Source: Parabacteroides massiliensis
GTDB lineage: Bacteria; Bacteroidota; Bacteroidia; Bacteroidales; Tannerellaceae
Reading direction: 5' to 3'
DNA length: 64,000 bases
Assembly (NCBI RefSeq): GCF_900155425.1
Contig: NZ_LT700190.1
Location: forward strand, 603,386-667,385
A model generated the notes under the pieces. It was not told where the DNA came from and made no database searches. It saw nothing but the letters and a program-made list of their open reading frames with translations. Both the position numbers and the translations under genes were made by a program. Positions 3,592-27,478 of the stretch are shown here, piece after piece; positions within the stretch are counted from its first letter, which is position 1; each line of letters begins with the position of its first letter.

Positions 3592-3613
3592 TATTCATTC
3601 TTTTCGTTCTTTG

Positions 3614-5101: not shown

Positions 5102-5119
5102 AACTTCCAATTTTCAATT

Positions 5120-8227: not shown

Positions 8228-8274
8228 GTATTAGAACTATGATTTATGATTTATAATTTATGATTTGTGAATTG

Positions 8275-11244: not shown

Positions 11245-12111
11245 TTATTCGATTTTCTTCATGAACCGATCCCATCGGAACCGTCCGGTGTAGGGGTCGG
11301 CCGACTTCCAGATAAAGGCCGCCTTGCCGACAATATATTCTTCCGGCAACAAGCCCCAATACCGGGAATCCTGCGAGTTCATGCCTTTGTCGCCCGCCAT
11401 GAAGTAGTAATTCTTTTGGAAACAATAGTCCTGCATCGGTTTCCCATTCAGATAGACCGTTGAATCCCTGTATTCTATTACTGTTTTTTGTTCATAGGCG
11501 ATCAACTTGCGATATAAAGCATAGTTTGTGCGGTTCATTTTGATCCGATCGCCGGCTTTCGGGATATAGAGCGGCCCGAAATTCCGAATATTCCAGTTCA
11601 AGATCGAGTCAAACGGGAACGCCTTATAGACACCGTCCGGGAACTCTCCCGGCAACGTCCGCCCGATCCGTTCCTGCGAGTCCGTGTTTCCGAGCGGTTC
11701 CGCCATCCCGTTTATCCGGAACTTCCCGTTTCGTATGGAAAGCGTGTCGCCCGGCAATCCGATACACCGTTTGATGTAGTATTTCAAGATGTGCATCTCG
11801 ACCTTGTCCCAACCGTTGGGATGCGGGAAGTTGAAGACCAGCACATCGCCCCGCTTTACTTTCCGGAATCCCGGCATGCGGTGTATCTCGGTCTGTTCCA
11901 GCCGCAACGTCGCGTTGAGGTCGAACAGCCGTGCGCCGAGTGTCGGTTTCCAGACCGCCACAAAGTCCCCTTCCGTCAGTTCCGGCTCCATTGAGTCGCT
12001 GGGGATGCGGAAGGAGGCGAGGAGGAAGACTTGGACGAAAACCCAAAGCACAACCAGTCCCGCCAAGACGAGAAATAGAGTCAATAATATGTCAATCCAT
12101 CGTTTCACCAT
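11245..12111 (-). CDS. lepB: signal peptidase I
   Basis: A 288-aa inner-membrane serine/lysine protease that removes Sec signal peptides. One N-terminal TM helix (residues 8-33) is followed by box B R-I-P-S-D-S-M-E-P with catalytic Ser40, and box D Y-Y-I-K-R-C-I-G-L-P-G-D with catalytic Lys114. Box E is G-D-K-G-M-N-S-Q-D-S-R-Y-W-G, with Lys in place of the usual Asn. Its place between the transglutaminase-like gene and the ligase/TPR gene, in an operon of short exported peptides, suggests a dedicated or extra peptidase; whether a housekeeping lepB exists elsewhere cannot be seen here. Confidence 0.92.
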   Translation of the reverse strand: MVKRWIDILLTLFLVLAGLVVLWVFVQVFLLASFRIPSDSMEPELTEGDFVAVWKPTLGARLFDLNATLRLEQTEIHRMPGFRKVKRGDVLVFNFPHPNGWDKVEMHILKYYIKRCIGLPGDTLSIRNGKFRINGMAEPLGNTDSQERIGRTLPGEFPDGVYKAFPFDSILNWNIRNFGPLYIPKAGDRIKMNRTNYALYRKLIAYEQKTVIEYRDSTVYLNGKPMQDYCFQKNYYFMAGDKGMNSQDSRYWGLLPEEYIVGKAAFIWKSADPYTGRFRWDRFMKKIE

Positions 12112-12147
12112 CTACAATATATTATATCCGGGTTGCAACAATCATTT

Positions 12148-12236
12148 TTAGGGAGTCGGAACAGGTGATTCCCAACCTTTTTATTCTTTAACTCCCAATT
12201 TATTACTTTTACCGTTATCTCCTTCTTTATTAATTA
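12148..12236 (-). repeat. R1 intergenic block, copy 1 (before lepB)
   Basis: On the minus strand this contains GGTTGGGAATCACCTG (12162-12177), preceded by an A/T-rich stretch with AATAAAGAAGGAG and followed by ACTCCCTAAAAAT. The same words recur at 15795-15875 and 17575-17676, where they form the leaders of two NVEALA genes. The two copies at 12160-12236 and 17599-17676 align over about 75 bp. Here no peptide gene follows, so it may mark a deleted one. Confidence 0.6.
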
Positions 12237-14276
12237 CCACCACACCTGTTTGCCGTTTTCATAAGTAAATGGCCTATGCTCTTTTCCTCGTGTATGATTA
12301 TGAATACGGAATAAAGCATTTTGGGGTATGCTATGAAACAGCAGTCTGTTCTCTTTACCATATTGCCGACCTAATGAAATCCATTTCTTGTCCCAATAGA
12401 ATAATTCATATAATTCTCCCGTAACAATTCTATTGTCATCGCTCCTTGGGTAAAACTCGACTTTTTCAATTGTATAAGGTTTACCGAAGTCGAAAACGAT
12501 ATATTGTCGTTTCTCCGCTCTATCAGGTTGATAGAATGTGACTCTGTCTCCATCGATAACGTTTTCGAGTTTATTGTCACTTATTCCTTTTGTTCCTGTC
12601 AGTTTACCTTCCAGCAATTGTCGGTTCTCTCCGAATATTTTTATTTCTGCAATGGAATAGGAATCCTGAAAATCCGGCGTATTTTGAAAATCACAAACCA
12701 AATAGCGGTATTTCATGTTTGTCTGAATCTTGAAACTGTCTTCATAAAAAGGCAGTTTCTCAATCGTATATACATGTAGACTGTCAGATAAATCTTTATT
12801 ATTGCAAACAGAAAAACGGGTTCCGATTGTCCCTGCAGCTTGCAATGCCGTATGCTGGCGGTATGGCATTTTTGAGTAGAAAGTTGCAGACATTTTCTTT
12901 TTATCAGTATCTTGTGAAAAATAGTTTAATTCTCCATTCTCTTTGATAATAAAAGCATCTCCTGCCGGAAAAATTACTCCGTTTTTGTAATAAGCCGGTA
13001 AGTAAAGCACATTCACTCCGACTTTTGTAAATAAGGCCTGCTTTTTTCTTGGAATGCTCCAACATACCGGAATCCAATTGCCATTGTCGTAACAGCATAA
13101 ATAGACATATTCTTTTTCGTGTTTCTCGTTCCATAGAGGGATTTTGATGTCCTTGCATACGATGTATTTGTCTGTAATGTCCTCTATCCCTGGATTTTTA
13201 AAGAAATCAGGAATATCCTCTTTTGCCTTGAGAGCCAGGCTGTTTTGTTGTATCTCATAATTAATCCTGTATACCTTTGGGATCGTTCTACAGTATTGTA
13301 TGGAAACATTGGAAAGTGTATCTTTTACTGCCGGGCTATAGGTGTTTTTCCAAAATATATTGTCGACCAATATATCACTATCAGAAAAATATGGCCTTTG
13401 GGTATTATCGTATAATATCTCAATGTGTTCATCTCCGATTATTTCCGTCCAAAAATGGGGGGAATTGGCATTACCCCAGTTGGGGAAAGTATTTAAAACT
13501 GCCGGAATGCCGTTTGCCCGTAATGCTGCGATTTTATAAATATTAGCTTCCAGACAGGTCCCAATCTGCGCTTTTGCAAGATTTTCAAAGGTTGTGGGAA
13601 GTAGTCCTTTATGCTTTAGTGAAAAAAGCCCCCAGTTTTGGATGAATGTCTTATCTATATCATCAGAAATAATTTTGCCGATCTCTTTATAAGATTTATG
13701 GCAAACGGAATCTCTTAATATTGCATATTTCTGTTCAAAGAAATCCGAAGCCTGTTCCCAATAACAGTTGTTTGTTGTATAAGGGAGGATGTATTTGCAA
13801 AATGTCTCAAAGTCAATGTCTTTACACCATTGATATTGTTGCCATATATGGAAGCAATTGTTGATGTGGCGGATTAGAAAATCAGCAGATATATGCTGGA
13901 GGTCTGACTGATATTGGGGATGTGACTGCCTATTGGGATATAAACGTTCGATGCTATCACAAATAGTATATTGGACACTGTTTTTGTAGCATCCATATAT
14001 TTCAAAGTGATCAGCCAGAGCATCAAAATAAAGTTGAGACTTCTTTATGGAATTCTTATCTACGGTTTGCTTCCCAAGCATATTCTTAATAAGAAAAGAA
14101 GAGGCTGTAAATTTTTGGGGGGCATCTTGATATTGATCCAAAACACACTTTAACTGCTGCTCATTTTTATCAGCAAATTTAAATGCATGAGTTAAAGCCC
14201 GGTCTTTGTATCCGCTACAAGAGGACAGGAAAAAAAGCAGAGGTGCAAGAAGTCTTACTAACTTATTTTGATCCAT
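12234..14276 (-). CDS. transglutaminase-like lipoprotein with C-terminal discoidin-like domain
   Basis: 680 aa. A lipoprotein signal has the F-L-S-S-C lipobox (Cys20). Residues about 25-160 form a helical N-terminal region. A transglutaminase-core fold follows, with G-T-C-L-E-A-N (Cys241), P-H-F-W-T-E (His274) and a following E-I-L-Y-D (Asp290) as the likely triad. The final 150 residues resemble an F5/8 type C beta-sandwich. Such lipoproteins are secreted, and the papain-like fold can cross-link, cleave or amidate. The gene follows a propeller gene by 23 nt in the NVEALA array. Related truncated N-termini occur at 21150-21398 and 15885-15929. No substrate can be read from sequence. Confidence 0.75.
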   Translation of the reverse strand: MDQNKLVRLLAPLLFFLSSCSGYKDRALTHAFKFADKNEQQLKCVLDQYQDAPQKFTASSFLIKNMLGKQTVDKNSIKKSQLYFDALADHFEIYGCYKNSVQYTICDSIERLYPNRQSHPQYQSDLQHISADFLIRHINNCFHIWQQYQWCKDIDFETFCKYILPYTTNNCYWEQASDFFEQKYAILRDSVCHKSYKEIGKIISDDIDKTFIQNWGLFSLKHKGLLPTTFENLAKAQIGTCLEANIYKIAALRANGIPAVLNTFPNWGNANSPHFWTEIIGDEHIEILYDNTQRPYFSDSDILVDNIFWKNTYSPAVKDTLSNVSIQYCRTIPKVYRINYEIQQNSLALKAKEDIPDFFKNPGIEDITDKYIVCKDIKIPLWNEKHEKEYVYLCCYDNGNWIPVCWSIPRKKQALFTKVGVNVLYLPAYYKNGVIFPAGDAFIIKENGELNYFSQDTDKKKMSATFYSKMPYRQHTALQAAGTIGTRFSVCNNKDLSDSLHVYTIEKLPFYEDSFKIQTNMKYRYLVCDFQNTPDFQDSYSIAEIKIFGENRQLLEGKLTGTKGISDNKLENVIDGDRVTFYQPDRAEKRQYIVFDFGKPYTIEKVEFYPRSDDNRIVTGELYELFYWDKKWISLGRQYGKENRLLFHSIPQNALFRIHNHTRGKEHRPFTYENGKQVWW

Positions 14277-14299
14277 TTTTTCTTTGAGATGATGAATAT

Positions 14300-15403
14300 T
14301 TACTTTTTTGTAAGATTTGGAATTATATCGTTTAGAATAGAACTGATGTTATAACGATAAAATTCATCTGTTGGACCATCTAATGTATATAGATATTTAT
14401 TTCTTAAGTCAAAATCGAATGACGTAATGAAACGATTCACTTTTATTTCAGCAATAGGTTCGCCTTCCCAATTGAACAGTTGGATTATAGGGAGTGATTT
14501 TCTTGTCGTTTGAAATGTTTTTTTATCATCCCCAATACGGAGGACTGCAAAAAAATCATTATATGTTCGTACAGCCCCGTATGTATAAATTCTCATCCAT
14601 TGTATTTTATTTTCTATGGAGCCGATATTATCCAATTTGTCGCCAACGCAAATGGTTTTCTGTAATTCACCCATACAAGAAAAAAGATTGATTTGGTTCA
14701 AAGTGATAGGAGCTTCAACTATAATATCTTTCTTGGGGTGTTTAACGGTGATAGAAGAAATAATATTAAAATCCTCTCCTTTGGCTACTTGAGCTTTGTT
14801 TAATCGGTCAAACTTTATGGGAGTTTCTTTTTCCCCATGATTCAGGATATATCTTAATTGTTGTGTCTGTTCGTTTGCAATCTCTTTACAATAAAAAATA
14901 CCATCGTCTATTATTGCAAAGTCAAAAAGAAACGGAGGAAGGTTGTCTTTAGTCAATTCCAATATGTTTTCTTGTGTACTAAATGAATCGTCAACATTCA
15001 TTTTATACAATCTGCCAGTTTGAAAATCATAAATATATGCAATTAATAGATCCTTTTCTCTTTGGAATGAAGAGTTTATTATATCGGGAGAATATATAAA
15101 TTCATTTGGTCCTTGCCCTTGTTTGATGAAAGATCCTTTAAAGGATAAATCGTCTGCTAAAAAGAAAGACCAAAATCCATTTTTGTCATTAGTGCTTACA
15201 ATTAGGAGGGAATCAACAATTCGAAATTGTTTCATACCGATCAAATCCCAATCCACTAATTTTTCATTGGACAAAGTGTATGATTTAGGGAACGAATGTA
15301 CATATTCGATTTTATCAAAAGCCATGATTTTAGATGGATTGGATGATTCATGGCAACCTATCAGCATGGTAAAAACAAAGAATAAGTAAAATATTTTTTT
15401 CAT
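14300..15403 (-). CDS. 6-bladed beta-propeller lipoprotein (propeller C)
   Basis: About 367 aa from the ATG at 15403; the open frame extends upstream only from a TTG. The signal M-K-K-I-F-Y-L-F-F-V-F-T-M-L-I-G-C is lipoprotein-type. Repeated four-stranded blade sequences follow, with the family loop G-Q-G-P-N-E-F. This matches the TolB-like 6-bladed propeller lipoproteins (BF3164-like / PF17170-type) that are frequent in Bacteroidales and usually lie beside NVEALA genes. The function of the family is not established; binding of a peptide or glycan is the usual guess. It lies between NVEALA peptide 1 and the transglutaminase-like gene. Confidence 0.75.
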   Translation of the reverse strand: MKKIFYLFFVFTMLIGCHESSNPSKIMAFDKIEYVHSFPKSYTLSNEKLVDWDLIGMKQFRIVDSLLIVSTNDKNGFWSFFLADDLSFKGSFIKQGQGPNEFIYSPDIINSSFQREKDLLIAYIYDFQTGRLYKMNVDDSFSTQENILELTKDNLPPFLFDFAIIDDGIFYCKEIANEQTQQLRYILNHGEKETPIKFDRLNKAQVAKGEDFNIISSITVKHPKKDIIVEAPITLNQINLFSCMGELQKTICVGDKLDNIGSIENKIQWMRIYTYGAVRTYNDFFAVLRIGDDKKTFQTTRKSLPIIQLFNWEGEPIAEIKVNRFITSFDFDLRNKYLYTLDGPTDEFYRYNISSILNDIIPNLTKK

Positions 15404-15513
15404 GATAAGAAAATGTAAATAAGAGTATTTCAATAAATATCAGTGAATTGTAATTAGCTTTATTTCTTTACAAATATTTTTTATTTGTTCCGCCTATGTT
15501 TTGAGTTAAAATA

Positions 15514-15783
15514 TTAATTACACTCCCCTGTACCTGAGAACCATGAATTGGTAGAGTCTGCTATATATGTACAAGTTGAACAATATAAAATTTTACTACC
15601 TGGCTGTGTCGTAATGGAATTGTAGCATTTCCCTGTTCCAGATTCTTCTCCGCTTGCGAGAGCTTCTATGTTGGCCAATGCCAAATCAGATAGTTCAACA
15701 TTCTGTTTGTTCTGCTGATAGTTCCAGCCTGCTGCTACGGCGATTGCAGCAAAAGCGATTACGCCGATAATTTTCTTTCCCAT
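15514..15783 (-). CDS. NVEALA-family leader peptide (peptide 1)
   Basis: 89 aa. An uncleaved-looking or Sec-type hydrophobic N-terminus (residues 5-19) is followed by a charged linker and the conserved leader L-S-D-L-A-L-A-N-I-E-A-L-A-S-G-E (31-46), characteristic of the Bacteroidetes NVEALA family (PF14055). The core holds Cys53, Cys68, Cys71 and Cys88 (C-x14-C-x2-C-x16-C, with Y-C-S-T-C). The leader resembles that of the broken peptide at 17262-17537 almost throughout. It is probably exported and processed near the A-S-G-E site (inference from the GG-like motif). The gene is preceded by an R1 block. Confidence 0.85.
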   Translation of the reverse strand: MGKKIIGVIAFAAIAVAAGWNYQQNKQNVELSDLALANIEALASGEESGTGKCYNSITTQPGSKILYCSTCTYIADSTNSWFSGTGECN

Positions 15784-15794
15784 GTTACATTTAT

Positions 15795-15875
15795 TTTTAG
15801 GGAGTTTATACTATATTTGTTTTGAATCTTTCTCCCGGTATCATTTTCCAAGACAGGTGATTCCCAACCATAGCA
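15795..15875 (-). repeat. R1 intergenic block, copy 2 (leader of NVEALA peptide 1)
   Basis: The minus strand contains GGTTGGGAATCACCTG (15854-15869), then ATGATACCG and ACTCCCTAAAAAT just ahead of the NVEALA ATG at 15783. These words are shared with the other two R1 copies. Confidence 0.6.
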
Positions 15876-15884
15876 CATGAAGTT

Positions 15885-15929
15885 TTATGAATTGAATAAA
15901 TTGATTAAAAAGATTAGATATAATTTCAT
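15885..15929 (-). pseudogene. 14-codon remnant of a transglutaminase-like lipoprotein
   Basis: An ATG overlapping the stop of the preceding propeller gene (ATGA overlap) opens M-K-L-Y-L-I-F-L-I-N-L-F-N-S and then a stop. In the duplicate at 21356-22435 the same start continues through the lipobox Cys into transglutaminase-like N-terminal sequence. Here the homology stops exactly at the edge of the 1,080-bp repeat (15887), so only the signal peptide is left. Confidence 0.6.
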
Positions 15930-16966: not shown

Positions 16967-16994
16967 ATACTATAATCCTTATCTATATAATGCT

Positions 16995-17249
16995 TTATAA
17001 ACAAATACTTTCATTATTCCAGCTGGTCGCATAAAGCAATTGGCATCCTCCACAATACCTTATGTAATTACCTAATCCAGATCCGCTACTTGATATATAT
17101 TTATAGCAGTGCGTGGTAATATTCCCTGATTCCCCTTGAGCCAATGCTTCTATGTTAGCTAAAGTCAAGTCGTCTAATCTATCTTTGTTTATGTGAGAAT
17201 TGATAAAACAACTAACAATTATAAATGCTGATAAAAATAATTTCTTCAT
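16995..17249 (-). CDS. NVEALA-family leader peptide (peptide 2)
   Basis: 84 aa. The hydrophobic N-terminus (M-K-K-L-F-L-S-A-F-I-I-V-S-C) is followed by the leader motif L-D-D-L-T-L-A-N-I-E-A-L-A-Q-G-E (25-40). The core has Cys48, Cys66, Cys69 and Cys83 (C-x17-C-x2-C-x13-C; R-Y-C-G-G-C), the same spacing as the broken peptide upstream. It starts 12 nt after that gene, with an AAAGATAAAGAG ribosome-binding region. It is predicted to be an exported, disulfide-forming peptide; this is inference. Confidence 0.83.
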   Translation of the reverse strand: MKKLFLSAFIIVSCFINSHINKDRLDDLTLANIEALAQGESGNITTHCYKYISSSGSGLGNYIRYCGGCQLLYATSWNNESICL

Positions 17250-17261
17250 GACTCTTTATCT

Positions 17262-17537
17262 TTAAAATTGTAGGCAATAACTTGTATCCCAATATGAAAA
17301 GCCTAAAATATATCTACATTCTCCACAATATAGAATATAATCGTTTGGAAAAACATGGTCGTATTGGATATTTTGATAACATACTCCTCCTTGTCCCCAT
17401 TCTCCTAGTGCTAAAGCCTCGATATTTTTTTAAGACAAGTCAGACAGTTCAACTTCTTGTTTGTTCTGCTGGTAGTTCCAGCTTGCTGCTATGCTGATCG
17501 TAACAAAAGCGATTACGGTAAAAAATTTCTTCTCCAT
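17262..17537 (-). pseudogene. NVEALA-family leader peptide interrupted by a stop codon (peptide 3)
   Basis: The minus strand from ATG at 17537 encodes M-E-K-K-F-F-T-V-I-A-F up to V-E-L-S-D-L-S. Then a TAA at codon 36 (17430-17432) is followed in frame by K-N-I-E-A-L-A-L-G-E and a full core with Cys53, Cys71, Cys74 and Cys88, ending in C-L-Q-F-stop. Compared with peptide 1 (L-S-D-L-A-L-A-N-I-E-A-L-A), the stop replaces a Leu; TTA to TAA is one base change. Frame and length are otherwise intact, pointing to a recent nonsense mutation, a sequencing error or, less likely, recoding. Confidence 0.8.
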
Positions 17538-17574
17538 TTTGATATTATTTTATTATTTATTATTAATTGTGGCT

Positions 17575-17676
17575 CTTTCGTTCGGTATCATTTCTCGAAA
17601 CAGGTGATTCCCAACCCTTTTGTTCTTTACTTTAAATTTACTACTTTTGTCGTTACCTCCTTCTTTATTAGTTATT
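17575..17676 (-). repeat. R1 intergenic block, copy 3 (leader of NVEALA peptide 3)
   Basis: This is the longest R1 copy. The minus strand has AATAAAGAAGGAGG, then an A-rich stretch, then GGTTGGGAATCACCTG (17601-17616) and ATGATACCG. The first part aligns with 12160-12236 and the last part with 15835-15870. Confidence 0.6.
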
Positions 17677-17682
17677 GAATGA

Positions 17683-17747
17683 GGGAAAGTCCGGGAGTTT
17701 CTGCTAACGTTTGTGAGTCAGTAGGCAGAGACTCCTTTCTTTTTCCC
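17683..17747 (-). promoter_or_regulatory. long intercistronic hairpin
   Basis: On the minus strand GGAGTCTCTGC pairs with GCAGAAACTCC (one mismatch) around a 20-nt loop, with outer GGGAAA/TTTCCC pairing. It lies just after the DUF1573 gene stop. No T-run follows on the minus strand, so it may be an RNA-stability or attenuation structure rather than a classic terminator. Confidence 0.5.
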
Positions 17748-17757
17748 GTTAATAGCT

Positions 17758-18624
17758 TTATTCTACTGTCCCGATAAAACTCAACATCAGCGAGTTGTTC
17801 GGGATGTTTCCATAAATGTCTACCGTCCGGTAAAAATCACCCGGCTGTTCCGCTTCATAACTGATTGTGATTGTTCCGCTCTCTCCCGGTTGCAGTTCTT
17901 TCCAATCGCAAGTCGCTTCGGTGCAGTCGCAAGAGGTGGTGATACCTTTCAACTTAAAGACACTTGTCCCGGTATTCCGGACTGTGACCGTCTGCTTCTT
18001 GGTTGTTCCTTCTTTAACCGTTCCCAAATCGTATTCGCTCTTCTCGGCTTCAAGTAGAGTCGTTGGCAACACCTTTTTGTCCTGTATGCCGGTGATCTGT
18101 TTTAGATACAAATCCCTAACCGCCAAGTTATGCACCGGATTGCCGATTACTTTCACTTTGTTGTCCCTGTCAAGCAGGAATGTCTGGAAAGTGATATCTT
18201 GTGGAAATTGGTTCAACTTGTCCAACCGGCTGTCCCGATCAATGCAGACAGGTCGGTCGAAGTTGTCACGTTTTAAGATATATCGTAATTCTCGGTCGTC
18301 TTTTGATTGGAAGACGAAGATAAACGGAATGTTGCTGTTTGTTGCCGAATCAACATGGGCGATCAATTCTTTCCATTTCGGCAGTTGCAATTTGCAACTG
18401 GTGCAACCTGTTGAATCGACATAAATCAGCACTTTATATTCAGCATCGGGTATCCGGTATTCTACCGGATTTGTGACAAAGCGGGTAAACTCCATATCCT
18501 GCGGGAAGACAATCTCTTTTCCCTGCCATTTCTGGACCAGGCGGGTAAATTGTTCTTTCTTCTTATCTTGGCAAGCGGAGGATAAGAGGAACAGGAATAA
18601 TATATAGAATAGTAATCGTTTCAT
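17758..18624 (-). CDS. thioredoxin-like / DUF1573 lipoprotein
   Basis: 288 aa. The lipoprotein signal has the S-S-A-C lipobox (Cys18). Residues about 60-175 look like a thioredoxin-fold domain with the S-T-G-C-T-S-C motif (Cys74, Cys77). The C-terminal about 90 residues match DUF1573, an Ig-like domain (Y-D-L-G-T-V-K-E-G and T-S-C-D-C-T). A surface or periplasmic disulfide-active lipoprotein is likely, and its operon partners include Cys-rich NVEALA peptides, which makes it a candidate for their oxidation (inference). It begins 7 nt after propeller A and precedes peptide 3. Confidence 0.75.
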   Translation of the reverse strand: MKRLLFYILFLFLLSSACQDKKKEQFTRLVQKWQGKEIVFPQDMEFTRFVTNPVEYRIPDAEYKVLIYVDSTGCTSCKLQLPKWKELIAHVDSATNSNIPFIFVFQSKDDRELRYILKRDNFDRPVCIDRDSRLDKLNQFPQDITFQTFLLDRDNKVKVIGNPVHNLAVRDLYLKQITGIQDKKVLPTTLLEAEKSEYDLGTVKEGTTKKQTVTVRNTGTSVFKLKGITTSCDCTEATCDWKELQPGESGTITISYEAEQPGDFYRTVDIYGNIPNNSLMLSFIGTVE

Positions 18625-18631
18625 ATTTTAG

Positions 18632-19687
18632 TTATAGTTTGAATTCCATGATCGGTTCATCACTTTCTACACATGTGGCGATGATTGTTTTTGTTTTTTC
18701 GTTTATATCGATTCCGTATATGGGTTTGTCTAAGATGTATTTTTGTAACGGGTTTCCTTGTAAATCGAACACATAAATGTAACGACCGCCGTCTTCCGGC
18801 TTTTCACCTCGTTGGTAGGAGGCTAATTTGTCTTTAAACCGGATTCCTTGGAATACGCTATAGATATGTTCGTCAGTGATAACAATATCACTGAATCCCA
18901 TAATTCCGGTTGGGACGCCTTCTCCTTTGACGCTTTTAAACCGGGGTTCGCCGTTCGGACCGTATAATACGGTATGGGTATTCTCTTTGGTATTGTATAT
19001 TTCAATGGATTCCCCTAATTGGGTGACCATTGCCAATATGCCATTGTGCGGGTTGTAATCAATAAAACTACGCCATGCCTGTGCTAATGCCGGACGGATT
19101 TCCGAAGCCAAATCTTTTTCGGTAGGTATTTTACCGATGCTTCTGATAGGTTTACCACTGTAGTCAACTTGCCAATATCGGTACTCTCCTAAATAGTCCG
19201 GGATCAGAAAACAAGAATCTGTGGCACAGAAATCTAATGAACGGATTAGATTTTTATCTAATTGTATCACTTCCTGTCTTGTAGCTGAATGGTCTTTTGC
19301 TGAAATCGCCCAGCGTGAGATCTGCATCTTGTTTGCATCGAGTGCATATATGGAATCGAGGGAGTTGAACTGAAATGTTTCGGCCGAAAGCATTTCTTCC
19401 GGTCCTTCCCCCCGTTTTCCGAAAGAAACGATATGTTTCCAATTAGGGTATGTGAAAGCATGAAAATAGTAATCGGCATTATGCAAATCCATTACAATAG
19501 CCATACTGTCTTTAACCGTTACCCGGAATGGGTAGCGGAAAAGAGCAGTATCCAGTTCGATAACCCGCGCACTTATTGCCTTTTCATTGGGAAAAGTCGA
19601 ATATCGGGGATAGTGGGTACCGGGGGAATCGGTACAGGAGATTATCGCACTGATACCTATTAATAATATGTATGCAAAACATTTCAC
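18632..19687 (-). CDS. 6-bladed beta-propeller lipoprotein (propeller A)
   Basis: About 351 aa. The best start is GTG at 19687, two bases after the stop of NVEALA peptide 4. It gives V-K-C-F-A-Y-I-L-L-I-G-I-S-A-I-I-S-C, a lipoprotein signal; the longer frame upstream overlaps the peptide gene and has no signal. Blade repeats follow, with family loop F-G-K-R-G-E-G-P-E-E-M and C-terminal P-I-M-E-F-K-L. The close spacing suggests coupled translation with the peptide. Confidence 0.75.
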   Translation of the reverse strand: MKCFAYILLIGISAIISCTDSPGTHYPRYSTFPNEKAISARVIELDTALFRYPFRVTVKDSMAIVMDLHNADYYFHAFTYPNWKHIVSFGKRGEGPEEMLSAETFQFNSLDSIYALDANKMQISRWAISAKDHSATRQEVIQLDKNLIRSLDFCATDSCFLIPDYLGEYRYWQVDYSGKPIRSIGKIPTEKDLASEIRPALAQAWRSFIDYNPHNGILAMVTQLGESIEIYNTKENTHTVLYGPNGEPRFKSVKGEGVPTGIMGFSDIVITDEHIYSVFQGIRFKDKLASYQRGEKPEDGGRYIYVFDLQGNPLQKYILDKPIYGIDINEKTKTIIATCVESDEPIMEFKL

Positions 19688-19689
19688 GG

Positions 19690-19920
19690 TTATTCTAAAC
19701 TTAAACCTGATATTTTGTATTCTACTTTGTGACCTCGGCAATCGACCGAACCGCAACCAAAGCAATTGGCATCCGCATCATTTTCGCCTTGGGCCAAAGC
19801 TTCTATATTCTGGAATGCCAGTTTGTTTAAATCTGTTGTTTCCCTGTTGCCAGAAAGACAGTATGCTGCCATTAAGCAGCCTGTTACTAAGATAAGTTTT
19901 ACAAGTGTTTCCCTTTTCAT
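19690..19920 (-). CDS. NVEALA-family leader peptide (peptide 4), first gene of the array
   Basis: 76 aa. A hydrophobic N-terminus (residues 6-22) precedes the leader motif L-N-K-L-A-F-Q-N-I-E-A-L-A-Q-G-E (31-46). The core is short and different from peptides 1-3: C-F-G-C-G-S-V-D-C (Cys53, 56, 61) and then K-V-E-Y-K-I-S-G-L-S-L-E. It is the promoter-proximal gene, transcribed away from the regulator at 20105. The upstream control region contains phased TTGGCAACA repeats. Confidence 0.83.
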   Translation of the reverse strand: MKRETLVKLILVTGCLMAAYCLSGNRETTDLNKLAFQNIEALAQGENDADANCFGCGSVDCRGHKVEYKISGLSLE

Positions 19921-19935
19921 TTTCGTATCTGTTTA

Positions 19936-20063
19936 TTGTTGGGATAAAGGTCGTTTTTTGTGTTAAGCCATGCAACTGATTTTTGCAACAAATTTGGCAA
20001 CAGTTGGCAACAATTGGCAACAAATTCTGAACGATTGAAAATTTCCTTAACCTATTGTTTGTA
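19936..20063. promoter_or_regulatory. R2 control region, copy 1: phased TTGGCAACA repeats plus promoter
   Basis: TTGGCAACA occurs at 19994, 20004 and 20014 at exact 10-bp spacing, with a degenerate fourth unit (TTTGCAACA) ending at 19990. Toward the minus-strand peptide gene follow a conserved GCATGGCTTAACACAAA and a -7-like GACCTTTA. About 130 bp align with 23637-23766, upstream of another propeller gene. Repeats spaced one helical turn, just upstream of a promoter, suggest cooperative binding of an activator. The divergent gene at 20105 is the obvious candidate (inference). Confidence 0.7.
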
Positions 20064-20077
20064 ACGAGTCCTTTGAT

Positions 20078-20085
20078 TATCTTTG
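20078..20085 (+). promoter_or_regulatory. -7 box of the regulator gene
   Basis: TATCTTTG matches TAnnTTTG, 19 nt upstream of the ATG at 20105, with a TTTG 16 nt upstream of it. Confidence 0.55.
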
Positions 20086-20104
20086 CTTTATTAAATAAAG
20101 CAAA

Positions 20105-21160
20105 ATGAAAATCAATAAACTGAACGTTATACTTTCGATTGTCGTTTTTTTGACAATATTGATTGTGTTCTTGTCTTACCGATATGCCGTACACGTAAAA
20201 AAGGAAGAAGTTCAAAGAGCTTTTTATCTGTTTAAGCAGTCTGTGGAAGAAGAAGAGACGCTTATGCAACCCGAACAAATATTTTGGGGAGATTCAAAAG
20301 CCGAGCTCCGGTCGGACTCTGTTATTATTGAAACTGAAAAAGGAAGAGTTCTGTATGAAAGAAATGAGCAGGCGGACAGCCTTGCTTTGATTGATAAAAG
20401 AGAATGGAGCTTCCAACTATTCATGACTTACAAAAATCCTAATCGCGCCTTTACCCTCGACAGTATTTATCAAGAGCAATTAAGAGATGAAGGGATAATT
20501 GCCCGGACTGCTGTATGTTTTTCACAAGGTGATAGCCTGGCCGGTTGCTCAAATGAAGCGGTATGCCGGAGAGGAATTGCCTTGTATCCTGTCGTGTTTG
20601 GGCCGAAACATGATGCGAAACGAATAGAACTGCAGGCGTATGTTTTGTTTTCTTCTTCCTACTTGATTAGCCGGATGCCTTTGATCTGGGGGTTGATTTT
20701 GTTGTGGTGCATTATTGTTTCAATGTATATATGGCAACGGCGCAAAAAGATGGATCATAAGGAATTCGTTAATCCTGCTACACCCATACCGGTAATGATC
20801 TCTTCGGATGTTTCGAAGGGGATAGAGATAGCACCAAATGTTTTTTTCAATAAGAAAACGGGAAGATTAAAAGGTCCGAATTGTGAAGTCTGCTTGACAA
20901 AAAATCGTTTACTTGCTTTTATCTGCTTTTTAGAAGCACCGGATCATACTGTCAGTTATCTCAATTTTTGTAAAGAGGTGTTGAAGCGGCCTCTGAACGA
21001 AGAAGATGAATTGACAGAGGAAAATAAGATGCTAAACCGAGCAATAAAGAAATCTATGGTACAAACTATAAAGCGCCTTCGAGAGGACCTGAATGCCTTC
21101 CCTGAATTCTCAATCGAAAATGACTCCGGTTCATTCTATCGATTAAATGTTAAAAAATAA
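20105..21160 (+). CDS. membrane-anchored winged-helix regulator (one-component type)
   Basis: 351 aa. TM1 lies at about residues 8-26, a periplasmic domain at about 27-188 with Cys138, Cys148 and Cys154, TM2 at about 189-210 followed by W-Q-R-R-K-K, and a cytoplasmic C-terminal domain at about 245-351. Its end (T-I-K-R-L-R-E-D-L and G-S-F-Y-R-L) resembles the OmpR/ToxR-type winged helix. There is no receiver or kinase domain. It is divergent from the NVEALA array and shares its control region, so it probably senses an envelope signal, perhaps the peptides, and acts on the phased repeats. The 3' end overlaps a convergent pseudogene by 11 nt. Confidence 0.72.
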   Translation: MKINKLNVILSIVVFLTILIVFLSYRYAVHVKKEEVQRAFYLFKQSVEEEETLMQPEQIFWGDSKAELRSDSVIIETEKGRVLYERNEQADSLALIDKREWSFQLFMTYKNPNRAFTLDSIYQEQLRDEGIIARTAVCFSQGDSLAGCSNEAVCRRGIALYPVVFGPKHDAKRIELQAYVLFSSSYLISRMPLIWGLILLWCIIVSMYIWQRRKKMDHKEFVNPATPIPVMISSDVSKGIEIAPNVFFNKKTGRLKGPNCEVCLTKNRLLAFICFLEAPDHTVSYLNFCKEVLKRPLNEEDELTEENKMLNRAIKKSMVQTIKRLREDLNAFPEFSIENDSGSFYRLNVKK

Positions 21161-21398
21161 TACTTCTAATCTGATACACCATCTTGAAAAAGCCTGAGAA
21201 ACAGGATTTCATATTTCTGATTAGAAATTGAGATGCTGTTAGCTGTTTTGGGTTATTCTGATAATGTTTCAGTATATTTTCCAATTCTCCTCTGTTTTCT
21301 CCAGACATGGACAAAGCTTGCTCTATACTGATTTTGTCAATCTTTGGTATGGAACATGAATTGAATAAATTGATTAAAAAGATTAGATATAATTTCAT
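21150..21398 (-). pseudogene. truncated transglutaminase-like lipoprotein
   Basis: 82 codons. Signal M-K-L-Y-L-I-F-L-I-N-L-F-N-S-C is followed by a stretch matching residues about 27-66 of the transglutaminase-like protein at 12234 (ending L-T-A-S-Q-F-L-I-R-N-M against F-T-A-S-S-F-L-I-K-N-M). It then runs into unrelated residues and a stop. No catalytic core remains. The ATG overlaps the stop of the upstream propeller gene. The deletion junction lies next to the 3' end of the regulator gene. Confidence 0.7.
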
Positions 21399-22435
21399 GG
21401 TAAATCATATATCAATAGGGCTTCTTTTTGGGCATTAAACCCGACCATTCGTTTATCGTTTTGGTCTACGGCGTAGATAATAGGTGAAATATCAAACGAA
21501 TAAGTCCGAACCAAAGTGCCTTCATTATTATAAACTTCTATCACATCCCCTTTATATTGCCCTTTGATAAATTCATTTGTTGTTTTATTGCGATACAAGG
21601 CGTAATAAAAATTCTTTGTTGCAAAAATATTTGCATAATAATACTTATTATCGGCATTTGGATCAATTGTTATACTTGGTTTTCTGTTATCCTTTTTTAC
21701 GACATGAATAACATTTCCGTTTAAATCCATAAAATCTATTTGATCTTTATATGAATAGGCATAAGCCATACTTTCTGAAGAAACAGCCAAGTGCCCTTTG
21801 TTTGAATAAAAAAAACTTTCACGGTGGTCATCTTTTTCGAATTTCCTTAAAAGTTTTTGCTTATTATTATTTAAATCAAGGCTCTTTAATTGTAGATCAA
21901 AAATATCATTAAATATAAGTCGGGTTGAATCTATAAATGCAATATCATTCATGGGGTTTCCATTTTGTGGTATTTTGTATTTTTCATGCAAGACGAAATT
22001 ATTCCCATCAAACGTGTAAGTGATAAACGTAGAAAGCCGGTCGAAACCACCGATGATTGCTTTGTCTGAAGTTGTATTGCATAAAATTGGTAACATCAGA
22101 TCCAAAGGGCCTTCTCCTTTTTTTCCAAAGCTTGATTTTAAAGTTAAAGGACTATCTCCATAAATATGGATCAAAGTATCCGCTTTTACACTTGCAATAA
22201 CAAAAAAATCACCAATAGAACTTATCTTTATGACATCAAATATTTCATTGGGATAGAATATTTCAGCACGCAGTAAGTTTGTGTTTTCCTCTAATTCCTT
22301 TTCTTGTTTGTTTTCTGTTTTTTGATAGTGGCAAGAAAATTGAAAAAATATCAATAAATAGTATAAATATTTCATATATATTAATTGTTAAAATTATGAC
22401 TTATATAGAATAAGGACTAAAATTATTGGTAATCA
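21356..22435 (-). repeat. 1,080-bp direct repeat, copy 2
   Basis: Near-identical to 15887-16966. This copy keeps the continuation of the transglutaminase start beyond the repeat edge, so it may be the donor or the less eroded locus. Confidence 0.9.
21395..22375 (-). CDS. 6-bladed beta-propeller lipoprotein (propeller B, copy 2)
   Basis: 326 aa, intact, with the same signal (F-F-Q-F-S-C lipobox), blades, loop G-K-K-G-E-G-P-L-D and C-terminus as the gene at 15926. Two amino-acid differences were noted. Its immediate upstream neighbour is only a 21-codon leader remnant, and downstream it overlaps a truncated transglutaminase. It is intact inside an otherwise decayed array. Confidence 0.78.
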   Translation of the reverse strand: MKYLYYLLIFFQFSCHYQKTENKQEKELEENTNLLRAEIFYPNEIFDVIKISSIGDFFVIASVKADTLIHIYGDSPLTLKSSFGKKGEGPLDLMLPILCNTTSDKAIIGGFDRLSTFITYTFDGNNFVLHEKYKIPQNGNPMNDIAFIDSTRLIFNDIFDLQLKSLDLNNNKQKLLRKFEKDDHRESFFYSNKGHLAVSSESMAYAYSYKDQIDFMDLNGNVIHVVKKDNRKPSITIDPNADNKYYYANIFATKNFYYALYRNKTTNEFIKGQYKGDVIEVYNNEGTLVRTYSFDISPIIYAVDQNDKRMVGFNAQKEALLIYDLP

Positions 22436-22455
22436 TATTTATCTGACTGGATGGG

Positions 22456-22521
22456 TTAGAAATACAAACCTCCCAGTGAACAAAGGAGAACGATACCTGA
22501 TTGAATAGTCTTTCTTTTCAT
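22456..22521 (-). pseudogene. remnant of a leader peptide gene
   Basis: ATG at 22521 opens M-K-R-K-T-I-Q-S-G-I-V-L-L-C-S-L-G-G-L-Y-F and a stop. The start resembles NVEALA peptide 4 (M-K-R-E-T-L-V-K-L-I-L). It occupies the position, upstream of propeller B, that peptide 2 holds in the intact array. No leader motif or Cys core follows in any frame. Confidence 0.4.
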
Positions 22522-22743
22522 GTTTATTCTATTTGTTAAATTAGTTTCCCTATATTTGTTTCATAAAACCTCTTTAATAGCAATAGGAGGTTGATGCAAA
22601 AGTATATATAAAATAGACTTGGGCAAGTGCTTTTAGGAAGGCGGGCGATAAATTGTAGGTAACGTCCTGATCTATAGTATGCATGTCAGCAAATTGTCAG
22701 AAAACTCAGCCTGTAGTCAGGATAAAATAGGAGGATTTTTGGT

Positions 22744-22869
22744 ATGAAACAAAAGATTTATATGATATTAAGTTGTGTGAGTCTGGCTTGTTTATTTAGT
22801 TGGTGGTTATGGAGTGCTTTCCATTGGATGGCGTTTCTTATCGATTATAGTTTGTATACTAAGATTTGA
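22744..22869 (+). CDS. possible 41-aa membrane peptide
   Basis: The ORF M-K-Q-K-I-Y-M-I-L-S-C-V-S-L-A-C-L-F-S-W is preceded by a strong AGGAGG 9 nt upstream. It contains one hydrophobic helix (residues 5-25) and ends in Y-T-K-I. Its 3' end overlaps the end of the convergent propeller gene by 25 nt. It could be a real small membrane protein or the start of a truncated gene. Confidence 0.35.
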   Translation: MKQKIYMILSCVSLACLFSWWLWSAFHWMAFLIDYSLYTKI

Positions 22870-23540
22870 GGATCGGATTCATATATTGTACCGGACATAA
22901 AGACTACATTTGCCATCAATTTCCTATCTTCAGATAAATAAGAGTGGCCATAATTCGCTTTTGACAATAATATTGCATCATCTTTTCTTCCTTCACAAGT
23001 CAGATAATCGCAATATGAATTATTATAAGACAAATCATCGTTCAGCAAGGTGTATTTTTTCTCCGTTCTTCCTGTCGCGACATATTTGTGCCCAATTTCA
23101 TATATCTCCAGAAATCGACTGTTCAAATCTAATTTATTGATGAAATCCGGAACACTCTTTTCTTTGCATCTATTGAGGCTATCAATGGAATAAGCGATGT
23201 ATTTTCTTTGCATATTATCGAATAGGCCTAAATAATAATTGCCTTCCCTTTGGAAAATATCCAAATTCATTATTTGTAAAAATTCATTTACACCTTGTCC
23301 TTTCTTTGCGAATGAATACATGACCGAATCATGTTGAATATCTATCACATCTATATTATACTCCCCCGAAAATGAATAATCGACAAAAAGTTGATTACCT
23401 AATATCTTTATTAGACCGGGAGCTCCTATTTCCACATTCAAAGTATCGACAGGTGTTAAATATCTATTTGCAACTATCCTTCCTTTTTCTGAACAGGAGG
23501 ATAATGACATCGTAAGTAAAATAAGAAAAATGTACCGCAT
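22845..23540 (-). CDS. shortened 6-bladed beta-propeller lipoprotein (propeller D)
   Basis: 231 aa. The signal has the S-L-S-S-C lipobox and the family loop A-K-K-G-Q-G-V-N-E-F. It ends in P-Q-I-L-V-Y-K-L, like the normal end of family members. At 231 aa against 326-367 it lacks roughly two blades; both ends look authentic, so an internal deletion near residue 218 is likely. It lies downstream of R2 control region copy 2. It may be non-functional. Confidence 0.65.
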   Translation of the reverse strand: MRYIFLILLTMSLSSCSEKGRIVANRYLTPVDTLNVEIGAPGLIKILGNQLFVDYSFSGEYNIDVIDIQHDSVMYSFAKKGQGVNEFLQIMNLDIFQREGNYYLGLFDNMQRKYIAYSIDSLNRCKEKSVPDFINKLDLNSRFLEIYEIGHKYVATGRTEKKYTLLNDDLSYNNSYCDYLTCEGRKDDAILLSKANYGHSYLSEDRKLMANVVFMSGTIYESDPQILVYKL

Positions 23541-23605
23541 AGTTTTAGATAATCAAATGATGTACTGAACTTGCATCATTCTGTTTTGTCCGGTTTATAT
23601 TACCA

Positions 23606-23620
23606 TCATGCACCTCCTTT
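23606..23620 (-). other. orphan strong ribosome binding site before a 4-codon ORF
   Basis: The minus strand reads AAAGGAGGTGCATGATG and then GTA ATA TAA, a near-perfect Shine-Dalgarno serving only M-M-V-I or M-V-I. It lies between control region R2 copy 2 and propeller D, where a peptide gene stands in the intact array. It is probably the footprint of a deleted leader-peptide gene. Confidence 0.4.
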
Positions 23621-23636
23621 CTTAGGGGGGCTTGCC

Positions 23637-23766
23637 GTTGTTTTGGGTAAAGGTAGTTCTTTGTGTTAAGCCATGCAATTAATTTTGGAAACAATTTTGG
23701 CAACAATTGGAAACAGATGGCAACAAATTCGGAGATATTGAAAATATTCTTGATATATTTGTTATA
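23637..23766. promoter_or_regulatory. R2 control region, copy 2
   Basis: Homologous to 19936-20063. Units are TTGGAAACA (23685), TTGGCAACA (23697), TTGGAAACA (23707) and ATGGCAACA (23717), spaced 12, 10 and 10 bp. The conserved GCATGGCTTAACACAAA and a -7-like TACCTTTA follow on the minus strand toward propeller D. The two copies have diverged, but the repeat core is kept. Confidence 0.65.
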
Positions 23767-27305: not shown

Positions 27306-27352
27306 AATGTTCTTTTTATCTGTTTGAACAGTGTATTCAGTCTGTAATACAA

Positions 27353-27384
27353 CAAAGATAGTAATGTTTCTTTGCATAGTCAAG
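27353..27384 (-). promoter_or_regulatory. promoter of the intact ATPase gene
   Basis: CAAAGATA at 27353-27360 reads TATCTTTG on the minus strand. A CTTG-type -33 element ends 20 bp farther upstream (27381-27384). This is the Bacteroidetes arrangement. Confidence 0.5.
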
Positions 27385-27422
27385 CCAATCGGACGGATAT
27401 GCAACGATATGTCTGTTTTATG

Positions 27423-27430
27423 TATCTTTG
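27423..27430 (+). promoter_or_regulatory. -7 box of the ion channel gene
   Basis: TATCTTTG matches TAnnTTTG about 48 nt ahead of the ATG at 27479. Confidence 0.5.
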
Positions 27431-27478
27431 TAACAATAATCAACTTCAACTGTTTTTAGTAAATTGAAGATTCTGGAT

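What the first reader, a model, noticed from the sequence alone, without database searches (positions are those of the whole stretch)
11245..23766. NVEALA peptide / beta-propeller array as a candidate undescribed secreted-peptide system
Four NVEALA leader peptides, several 6-bladed propeller lipoproteins, a CxxC/DUF1573 lipoprotein, a transglutaminase-like lipoprotein, signal peptidase I and a ligase/TPR protein lie on one strand, opposite a membrane regulator. NVEALA genes and propellers are known to neighbour each other, but no role is established for them. The set reads as export, processing, reception and sensing of peptides; that interpretation is inference.
Basis: partly seen in the sequence, partly recalled or inferred. 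Interest (0 to 1): 0.85.

Follow-up and report, generated by a model that had tools for sequence, protein, structure and literature searches.

The report
Gut bacterial peptide-and-partner gene cassettes
A gut bacterium carries a conserved set of genes that appears to make, cut, cross-link and sense small secreted peptides, in which each variable peptide travels between genomes together with its own matching propeller-shaped lipoprotein; this looks like an undescribed way for gut Bacteroidales to compete or communicate, but nobody has yet shown what the peptides do.

Summary
The array is real: three intact NVEALA precursors, a fourth with an in-frame stop, TolB-like propeller lipoproteins, a CxxC/DUF1573 lipoprotein, a transglutaminase-like lipoprotein, a signal peptidase I (SPase) paralogue and a Wzy_C/TPR protein, opposite a membrane regulator. 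The neighbours are not random: the set recurs in Parabacteroides, Bacteroides and other Bacteroidales, and the array-type SPase occurs in 20 of 22 NVEALA-positive versus 0 of 37 negative genomes, and in 36 of 43 versus 1 of 37 Bacteroides. Class I peptides (usually two Cys, conserved) sit next to the regulator. Class II peptides have a shared leader and hypervariable, mostly even-Cys payloads. Class II payload similarity tracks the next downstream propeller (Mantel r 0.63 and 0.67 in two sets); leader and upstream gene do not, the second downstream gene hardly. NVEALA fits an SPase I site (ALA|xxE). I infer a modular secreted-peptide system with cognate peptide-propeller pairs, most likely peptide plus self-protection, under a class I peptide/sensor loop; signalling with propeller receptors is the main rival. 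No function is shown. No paper in the held library contains the word NVEALA.

The parts
9408..11231 (-).
   Evidence: PF04932 53.6 bits; a match at E <= 1e-10 in 21 of 22 NVEALA+ and 2 of 37 NVEALA- genomes, some being contig-end fragments
11245..12111 (-). array-type signal peptidase I, additional to the genome's housekeeping pair
   Evidence: PF10502; own-genome paralogues; array-type copies score >=339 bits, all other listed SPases <=151; invariant S40-M41 and K114-R115 in 19 rows
12234..14276 (-). transglutaminase-like + discoidin lipoprotein
   Evidence: F5_F8_type_C 31.1 bits over cut-off; Transglut_core 16.2 bits below cut-off; recurrent neighbour
14300..15409 (-). propA, propeller lipoprotein paired with the class II peptide at 15514
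   Evidence: TolB_like 22.7 bits, below cut-off; hhalign to propC probability 99.8; same payload-propeller pair in L056
15514..15783 (-). class II NVEALA precursor, 4-Cys payload
   Evidence: PF14055 56.1 bits
15926..16906 (-). propB, propeller lipoprotein (no Pfam hit)
   Evidence: hhalign to propC probability 99.9, E 2.5e-33
16995..17249 (-). class II NVEALA precursor; one half of a two-peptide/one-propeller cassette as in L059 and L072
   Evidence: PF14055 37.3 bits
17262..17537 (-). class II NVEALA gene interrupted by an in-frame TAA (the other half of the two-peptide cassette)
17758..18624 (-). CxxC thioredoxin-like + DUF1573 lipoprotein, probable peptide disulfide or thiol chaperone
   Evidence: PF07610 82.6 bits; 42 of 54 named loci with >=8 kb downstream have it
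18632..19687 (-). propC (BF3164-type TolB_like lipoprotein), conserved core propeller; likely GTG start just after the class I stop
   Evidence: PF15869 279.7 bits; 30-row alignment
19690..19920 (-). class I NVEALA precursor; core payload, 3 Cys here
   Evidence: PF14055 40 bits; N, E, C, G, C invariant in 52 aligned rows; the two A were a selection criterion
19996..20020 (-). operator-like direct repeats TTGCC at 10-bp spacing in the regulator/class I intergenic region
   Evidence: 0 mismatches, chance mean 0.24 in the window at up to 2 mismatches; 3 of 4 genome-wide sites lie in NVEALA arrays
20105..21160 (+). membrane one-component regulator: TM, periplasmic alpha/beta domain, TM, OmpR-type winged helix
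   Evidence: AF2 mean pLDDT 89.5; winged-helix matches with VIA-align Z up to 11.2 (rmsd 2.6, 98 aligned residues in the top row), Foldseek best E only 3.3e-3; no family over its cut-off in Pfam or NCBIfam
21150..21398 (-). N-terminal fragment of a transglutaminase-like lipoprotein
21395..22375 (-). second, near-identical copy of propB without an intact peptide in front (orphan propeller)
22456..22521 (-). remnant of an NVEALA precursor, 21 codons then a stop
22845..23540 (-). propD, truncated propeller
   Evidence: 231 aa; 98% identical to a 180-aa ORF in the second array
23699..23723 (-). second copy of the TTGCC repeats (1 mismatch), remnant promoter region in front of propD

Best explanation
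This is a modular, polymorphic secreted-peptide system of Bacteroidales. (1) Core: a membrane one-component regulator faces or precedes a class I NVEALA peptide gene and its propeller lipoprotein propC; I infer that the regulator senses the class I peptide, or a propC-peptide complex, in the periplasm and drives the array from direct-repeat operators. (2) Variable cassettes: class II precursors share a leader (TM helix, then an amphipathic helix ending in NVEALA) but carry unrelated Cys-rich payloads, each followed by its own propeller. (3) Processing: the precursors are inserted by Sec; the array's own SPase I cuts after A-L-A of NVEALA; the CxxC/DUF1573 lipoprotein forms or edits disulfides; the Wzy_C/TPR membrane protein and the transglutaminase-like lipoprotein probably add a glycan or another covalent step; the adjoining RND pump may export. 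(4) Function: the payload is most likely an antagonist (or kin-recognition peptide) and its propeller the self-protection partner that binds it. Shown here: anatomy, conservation, phyletic coupling of SPase I and Wzy_C/TPR with NVEALA, payload-propeller co-inheritance, mostly even cysteine counts, operator-like repeats. Inferred: every biochemical step and the function. My estimates: cognate payload-propeller pairs 0.85; SPase I cutting at ALA 0.65; disulfide-bonded payloads 0.85; glycan or ligase step 0.4; peptide plus self-protection as the role 0.45.
For: Payload versus next propeller: r 0.664 in 74 class II pairs, 0 of 2000 permutations reach it, also when permuted within genomes; leader versus propeller r 0.046. 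Controls: second downstream gene 0.15, third 0.04, upstream 0.017 and 0.058. After stricter removal of class I rows, r is 0.632 (75 pairs) and 0.670 (50 pairs from named non-Parabacteroides loci). Phyletic: SPase I 20/22 versus 0/37 and 36/43 versus 1/37; Wzy_C/TPR 21/22 versus 2/37. Motif: -3 is A or S in 139 and -1 is A in 138 of 141 ungapped rows (6 of 147 gapped), while +2 is G in only 77. Cys counts even in 104 of 118 strictly chosen class II payloads and exactly 2 in 60 of 62 class I payloads. Orphan propellers: 58 of 133 have a relative paired with a peptide elsewhere, 40 of them of class II type and 18 propC-like, as expected of retained protection genes. Two-peptide/one-propeller cassettes. 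A second array type in this genome with an unrelated leader reuses propeller, SPase I, CxxC/DUF1573 and adds GT2 and PMT-like proteins, which fits a glycosyl-transfer step.
Against: No activity, peptide or transcript data. Payloads are mostly acidic (median charge -2, 11 of 118 positive), unlike membrane-active antimicrobials. Co-inheritance fits ligand-receptor as well as toxin-immunity. 75 of 133 orphan propellers have no paired relative at similarity 0.35 or more, and an orphan may only mean an uncalled peptide or the end of a region (13 follow a gene on the other strand, 5 have none before them). The second downstream gene keeps a weak signal: r 0.15, 2 of 2000 permutations reach it, and 0.335 among pairs of the same family. 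The motif counts are biased upwards, because the search profile was seeded with ORFs chosen for EAL[AS]. Seven NVEALA+ Bacteroides and G005 and G029 lack the array-type SPase I, and several of these genomes are 94-99% complete. 20 of 77 named propC loci have no NVEALA called immediately upstream (2 have no upstream gene). The ALA site lies ~20 residues beyond the TM helix, further than an ordinary signal-peptide c-region. Exporter unknown: the adjoining RND pump is untested.
Confidence: 0.45

Rival explanations
1. Peptide signalling: all NVEALA peptides are signals, the propellers are their periplasmic or surface receptors, and the regulator (or HK/RR pair) reads the complexes; the variety serves private communication rather than killing.
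For: Most complete arrays begin with a membrane sensor next to a conserved peptide: of 58 regulator-profile hits (fragments, kinases and response regulators included) 42 are divergent to an NVEALA gene, and by my reading 40 of those 42 genes carry the class I payload; in the named set a regulator is next in 53 of 77. In one other family the sensor is a histidine kinase plus response regulator with a homologous sensor domain. Acidic payloads. Class I payload similarity tracks the sensor (r 0.64).
Against: Usually one sensor but several payload/propeller pairs per array; orphan propellers without peptides; class I-sensor correlation is no better than leader-sensor (0.64 versus 0.68), so it may be shared descent.
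Confidence: 0.32
2. Propellers are carriers, chaperones or anchors that mount the peptides on the outer membrane for a structural or host-directed role (adhesion, mucus or immune contact).
For: Lipobox-like N-termini, seen by eye, on propellers, DUF1573 and transglutaminase-like proteins; transglutaminase-like and Wzy_C genes suggest covalent attachment.
Against: Does not explain why payloads diversify so strongly or why unpaired propellers accumulate.
Confidence: 0.13
3. The NVEALA leader is a double-glycine-type leader cut by a C39 ABC exporter, so the SPase I is a bystander.
For: The genome has one C39 protein; the GE after NVEALA superficially resembles a GG site.
Against: C39 gene unlinked (C1:292 kb); the G is not conserved (77 of 147) while AxA is; the leader starts with a TM helix (low-confidence model); array SPase I tracks NVEALA across genomes.
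Confidence: 0.06
4. Mere gene linkage: repeats and transposition copy neighbouring genes together and no functional pairing exists.
For: Near-identical duplicated segments and decaying copies; genes that I recognise from memory as IS66- and IS21-like beside propD in the second array; weak signal also for the second downstream gene.
Against: Leader, upstream gene and second downstream gene are about equally linked but do not follow the payload, or hardly.
Confidence: 0.04

Closest known systems
Bacteroidetocins (anti-Bacteroidales class IIa-like peptides; PMC6671954, passages read)
   Same: Small peptides of Bacteroidales with 4 Cys; a thiol oxidoreductase is encoded beside the peptide, and that paper says Bacteroides lack the general disulfide machinery; payload after a leader.
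   Different: Theirs have 15-16 aa leaders predicted to be cut after GG, an ABC transporter with a double-glycine peptidase domain, a net charge of +2 for the Bo/Bt peptide and no immunity gene. Here: TM-type leader with NVEALA, SPase I, a propeller partner for each payload, mostly acidic payloads.
Staphylococcal AgrD / SpsB and other SPase I-processed peptide pheromones (recalled, not read)
   Same: An amphipathic leader at the membrane cut by a type I signal peptidase; a membrane sensor reads the product.
   Different: An AgrB-type protein was not searched for; a dedicated rather than general SPase I; many different payloads; propeller lipoproteins.
Polymorphic toxin/immunity cassettes and acquired orphan immunity genes in Bacteroidales (recalled, not read)
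   Same: Conserved N-terminal part, interchangeable C-terminal payload, adjacent cognate gene, unpaired copies of the partner.
   Different: Payloads are about 20-80 aa and Cys-rich; partners are propeller lipoproteins; dedicated processing genes; toxicity not shown.
PF14055 NVEALA, PF15869 TolB_like/BF3164 family
   Same: Sequence families of the peptides and of propC; a Phocaeicola plasmid relative is annotated 'BF3164 family lipoprotein'.
   Different: The family names seen here give no role; the two peptide classes and the cognate pairing are not part of them.

Membership tests
PF14055 NVEALA | profile score over the curated cut-off | tested here: met
   56.1, 37.3 and 40 bits against 27
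Class II / bacteroidetocin-type bacteriocins | short non-hydrophobic leader ending in GG/GA/GS | tested here: not met
   hydrophobic N-terminal helix 2-24 (low-confidence model; also plain in the sequences); +2 is G in 77 of 147 rows and +3 is E
Class II / bacteroidetocin-type bacteriocins | linked C39 peptidase-containing ABC exporter | tested here: not met
   single C39 protein in the own genome, at C1:292 kb; arrays are on C2
Class II / bacteroidetocin-type bacteriocins | linked thiol oxidoreductase and even number of Cys | tested here: met
   CxxC/DUF1573 lipoprotein (oxidoreductase activity not shown); even Cys in 104 of 118 class II payloads
Type I signal peptidase substrates | small residues at -3 and -1 | tested here: met
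   139 and 138 of 141 ungapped rows, with the seeding bias told above
Type I signal peptidase substrates | cleavage a few residues after the hydrophobic core | tested here: not met
   ALA lies about 20 residues after the TM helix
Polymorphic toxin/immunity systems | payload and adjacent partner inherited as a pair while the leader is shared | tested here: met
Polymorphic toxin/immunity systems | payload is toxic and the partner protects | not testable with these tools
   needs competition or expression assay
ToxR/CadC-type membrane-bound winged-helix regulators | OmpR-type winged helix fused to TM and periplasmic domain | tested here: met
   the DNA-binding domain is C-terminal after two TM helices, the reverse of ToxR/CadC (their order is recalled)
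Wzy_C O-antigen ligase / O-oligosaccharyltransferase | PF04932 domain | tested here: met
   53.6 bits against 31.7
Wzy_C O-antigen ligase / O-oligosaccharyltransferase | transfers glycan to these peptides | not testable with these tools
   inference from co-occurrence and from the parallel array with GT2 and PMT-like proteins
Known anti-phage defence systems (PADLOC-DB) | match to a model at E <= 0.001 | tested here: not met
   0 families for the 8 array proteins given; the peptides and the propB copy were not given

The most novel reading that the evidence does not exclude
A general, undescribed principle in gut Bacteroidales: leader-borne, disulfide-bonded and probably glycosylated secreted peptides, each recognised by its own propeller lipoprotein, exchanged as cassettes between genera and switched on by a private peptide-sensor loop. 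It occurs with at least two unrelated leader families in one genome (NVEALA with SPase I + Wzy_C; the MxxLQYALDDYG leader with short SPase I + PMT-like + GT2), which would make the propeller a new class of cognate partner for bacterial competition or kin-recognition peptides.
Probability: 0.3. Interest if true: 0.92.

Novelty: new variant of a known kind. Interest (0 to 1): 0.8.

Why it matters
Families annotated only by a motif or a fold (NVEALA, BF3164-type propellers, DUF1573) turn into one testable system in human gut bacteria. About half of the sampled Bacteroides genomes carry NVEALA (43 of 80). The pairing test names which propeller should bind which peptide, and the motif analysis names the cleavage site, so function can be tested directly. 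If antagonism is confirmed it would be a large reservoir of narrow-spectrum gut peptides; if signalling, a new gut quorum-sensing family.

Tried and rejected
Double-glycine/C39 export: rejected on leader anatomy, motif statistics and linkage. Anti-phage defence: no PADLOC match. Phage or plasmid cargo: no propC relative in 50,697 phage records and three on plasmids, all Phocaeicola; arrays look chromosomal. Trans-acting SPase in G022: at first I took its SPase/Wzy_C locus as unlinked, but the fetched stretch ends at a contig end (L129), so no claim is made. A single conserved operator sequence for the regulator: rejected. Chains of four TTGCC-like units occur only in the window and L010, no other of the 97 regions has more than two; instead 13 of 78 regulator/class I intergenic regions hold some 3-unit direct repeat at 10 or 11 bp with z > 3.5 (lags 8-13 tried; among the 18 regions with z > 3 one has lag 8), against 0 of 60 shuffled. 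Solved-structure relatives by sequence: none for class I peptides, weak NHL-propeller hits for propC. Class assignment by pattern misplaced some class I rows as class II (and so in the Cys and charge counts); I repeated both with stricter exclusion and the results held. Rows dropped: regions L110 and L113 (overlaps) and 23 Parabacteroides loci of the named set beforehand; then set 1, 148 rows (8 no motif, 4 short payload, 19 no propeller-sized gene next, 38 class I, 4 duplicates, 75 kept); set 2, 111 rows (5, 1, 11, 44, 0, 50 kept). Of 15 cross-set payload matches 2 are the same genome (B. ihuae, L183/L109); of the other 13, 9 have the matching propeller ranked first of 75 and all rank within the first six. 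For the class I fold I aligned 52 of 59 candidate rows (one search listed 58 plus the window; 7 were left out by hand: L171, L180, L186:9772, L191, L196, L215, L216). The model of the class I precursor is weak (mean pLDDT 65.4, pTM 0.25). The periplasmic sensor domain was not folded or searched alone, so its fold family is open (one search tested essentially residues 236-351). Whether the adjoining RND pump tracks NVEALA across genomes was not tested.


Full report
What is in the window. The window lies at G000:C2:603386-667385 of a 5.0 Mb genome. The genus is Parabacteroides by its closest named relatives: propC is 89% identical in P. acidifaciens, and contigs of same-genus genomes have the lengths of named Parabacteroides contigs (for example 3,728,990 and 4,481,443 bases). 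Three NVEALA genes are intact, one has an in-frame TAA and one is a short remnant. The Wzy_C/TPR gene is just outside the interval. A second array of about 30 kb lies roughly 80 kb away, with three more regulator/class I/propC starts, one of its regulators being split into two ORFs.

Neighbourhood survey. PF14055 occurs in 22 of 59 genomes of the relatives set (own genome included), 15 of 295 sampled genomes of the order and 43 of 80 sampled Bacteroides. I fetched 56 regions from the first set and 20 from the second. Unsupervised clustering of 937 genes in 59 regions (the 56 plus the window's first 30 kb, L009 and L010) puts at the top, by number of regions: NVEALA (57), propellers (41), the winged-helix regulator (35), DUF1573 (29), further propellers (23), transglutaminase-like (22), SPase I (18), propellers (16) and Wzy_C/TPR (15); RND adaptor (10) and RND pump (7) follow, then clusters in 6 regions or fewer. 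Many regions end at contig ends, so these are lower bounds. The commonest order is regulator, class I peptide, propC, DUF1573, class II peptide, propeller(s), transglutaminase-like, SPase I, Wzy_C/TPR, with variations. A named set (77 loci in Parabacteroides, Bacteroides, Phocaeicola and others) repeats it: an NVEALA directly before propC in 57 of 77, a regulator next in 53 of 77 (26 divergent, 27 in tandem), and among 54 loci with at least 8 kb downstream, DUF1573 in 42, transglutaminase-like in 39, another NVEALA in 42, SPase I in 34 and Wzy_C/TPR in 29. The named set overlaps the first in Parabacteroides genomes and B. ihuae.

Phyletic coupling. The array SPase I is a paralogue besides the housekeeping pair. 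With the array profile, array-type copies score 339 bits or more and all other listed SPases 151 or less. It is present in 20 of 22 NVEALA+ genomes (absent in G005 and G029) and 0 of 37 NVEALA- ones. In 80 Bacteroides, at E <= 1e-60, it is in 36 of 43 NVEALA+ and 1 of 37 NVEALA- genomes. Wzy_C/TPR is in 21 of 22 and 2 of 37, some of these hits being contig-end fragments; it was not tested in Bacteroides. Fisher p values are 8e-14, 1.5e-14 and 1e-12; they ignore shared ancestry of the genomes.

Two peptide classes. The NVEALA next to the regulator has a conserved payload (class I; N, E, C, G and C invariant in 52 aligned precursors; the two A of the motif are invariant too, but had been a selection criterion). 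Of 58 regulator-profile hits (fragments, kinases and response regulators included) 42 have an NVEALA divergently adjacent; by my reading 40 of these 42 carry a class I payload, one is cut by the end of the region and one is truncated (some regions overlap). The other NVEALA genes (class II) share the leader but have unrelated payloads; of 118 strictly chosen ones 65 have 4 Cys, 21 have 6, 18 have 2, and 14 an odd number.

Payload-propeller pairing. For class II the similarity matrix of payloads correlates with that of the next downstream propeller (r 0.664, 74 pairs; no permutation of 2000 reaches it, also when permuted only within genomes), whereas leaders do not (r 0.046). The second and third downstream and the first and second upstream genes give 0.15, 0.04, 0.017 and 0.058; the second downstream value is reached by 2 of 2000 permutations and rises to 0.335 among pairs of one family. 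In named non-Parabacteroides loci r is 0.618 against -0.019 for leaders, and with stricter class I exclusion 0.632 and 0.670. For example the CPNGC payload and its type of propeller occur in several genera. Exceptions exist: many best payload matches below a similarity of about 0.3 have unrelated propellers. Two-peptide/one-propeller cassettes occur; the window's own (17262-17537 and 16995-17249 with propB) has one peptide interrupted. Unpaired propellers are common: 58 of 133 resemble a propeller that is paired elsewhere, 40 of class II type and 18 propC-like.

Processing site. In 147 non-redundant aligned precursors (6 gapped at these positions) the residues at -3 and -1 of NVEALA are A/S in 139 and A in 138, exceptions being L, G and T; -2 is L in 135; +2 is G in only 77; +3 is E in 129, the other 18 being gapped. 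The profile had been seeded with ORFs holding EAL[AS], which favours such rows. This obeys the SPase I rule but not the double-glycine rule. The predicted class I precursor (mean pLDDT 65, low) has a hydrophobic helix, a second helix ending at the last A of NVEALA, and a hairpin. I infer that the array SPase I is specialised for this displaced site.

Regulator. The model (mean pLDDT 89.5) shows a TM helix, a periplasmic alpha/beta domain, a second TM helix and an OmpR-type winged helix; Foldseek gave no match at E <= 0.001 for the whole model, its best rows being OmpR-type domains. No Pfam or NCBIfam family reaches its cut-off. In one other family of the order the same position holds a histidine kinase plus response regulator, whose sensor part aligns with this one (hhalign probability 95.3, E 2.3e-8). 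The window's intergenic region holds TTGCC repeats at 10 bp; across the genome three of four such sites (up to 1 mismatch) are in NVEALA arrays, and the reversed control pattern gives one hit.

Export. No exporter is proven. A tripartite RND pump (319-9339: pump genes, adaptor, outer-membrane factor) adjoins Wzy_C/TPR here; RND adaptor-like genes recur in 10 and pumps in 7 of the 59 regions, and ORFs of RND size follow Wzy_C/TPR in several Bacteroides loci. This may be an old shared locus or the exporter.

A parallel array. In the same genome, C4:264-284 kb holds repeats of a different precursor (leader MVQLKKKAVLLIGALMLLFGMGMNLQYALDDYG...) with variable Cys-rich payload, DUF5128 propellers, short SPase I, a CxxC/DUF1573 protein, a GT2 glycosyltransferase and a multi-TM protein with a sub-threshold PMT_2 match. 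In other Parabacteroides the PMT-like gene, the precursor and a propeller are again close neighbours (three fetched loci, G006, G013 and G033), with SPase I in one of them. The three precursors tried have no Pfam or NCBIfam family over cut-off, and the family is sporadic (5 of 59 genomes, one of them by weak fragments). It suggests that the logic of leader peptide, propeller, SPase I, thiol lipoprotein and membrane glycosyltransferase is more general than NVEALA.

Literature. No paper in the held library contains NVEALA. The five hits for PF14055 are four Plasmodium papers and a method paper by their titles (search listing only). BF3164 appears once, in a list of proteins (one passage of PMC1887533). 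A survey of Bacteroidales RiPP clusters does not contain the words propeller, signal peptidase or lipoprotein (PMC10352776, word search only). PMC10434189 (passages) lists BT0662, BT0664, BT0667 and BT0669 of B. thetaiotaomicron with annotations matching this locus; the second number beside these entries is 0.113 to 0.353, which I read as a p-value, so I take no expression evidence from it. Further searches showed no description of the system in their listings. Subscription papers and preprints are not covered.

Verdict. The system is real, conserved, modular and polymorphic, and peptide-propeller pairing is the new result. Its function is not established; self-protection against a secreted peptide is my leading reading, peptide signalling a close rival.

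Noticed in passing
L125:4188-20000 and L126:1-3837 (G000:C4:264-284 kb): A parallel array with an unrelated leader peptide family, variable Cys-rich payloads, propellers, short SPase I, CxxC/DUF1573, GT2 and PMT-like proteins; the precursors tried have no Pfam or NCBIfam family over cut-off.
   Followed up: partly
L117, L118, L119, L124: In one Bacteroidales family the regulator is replaced by a histidine kinase plus response regulator; the sensor part of the kinase is homologous to that of the one-component regulator (L124 not in the comparison).
   Followed up: partly
L052:13331-14815: A class II-type propeller (DUF5128) with an extra N-terminal stretch holding a GAGCDGC thioredoxin-like motif.
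   Followed up: no
window 24079-25239 and 25752-27449: Two related AAA-ATPase_like genes (PF09820 tested for the first) beside the array on opposite strands.
   Followed up: no
window 319-9339: RND pump, adaptor and outer-membrane factor next to Wzy_C/TPR, a candidate peptide exporter; RND-type genes also lie near the module in several relatives and beside the second leader family in G006.
   Followed up: no
L107:1-12000: A run of ten propeller-profile genes with a single NVEALA gene, like a store of unpaired partner genes.
   Followed up: no
G013, G014, G019, G021, G023, about 10 kb from the array: A second Wzy_C/TPR paralogue (597-665 bits) near the array in five Parabacteroides genomes.
   Followed up: no
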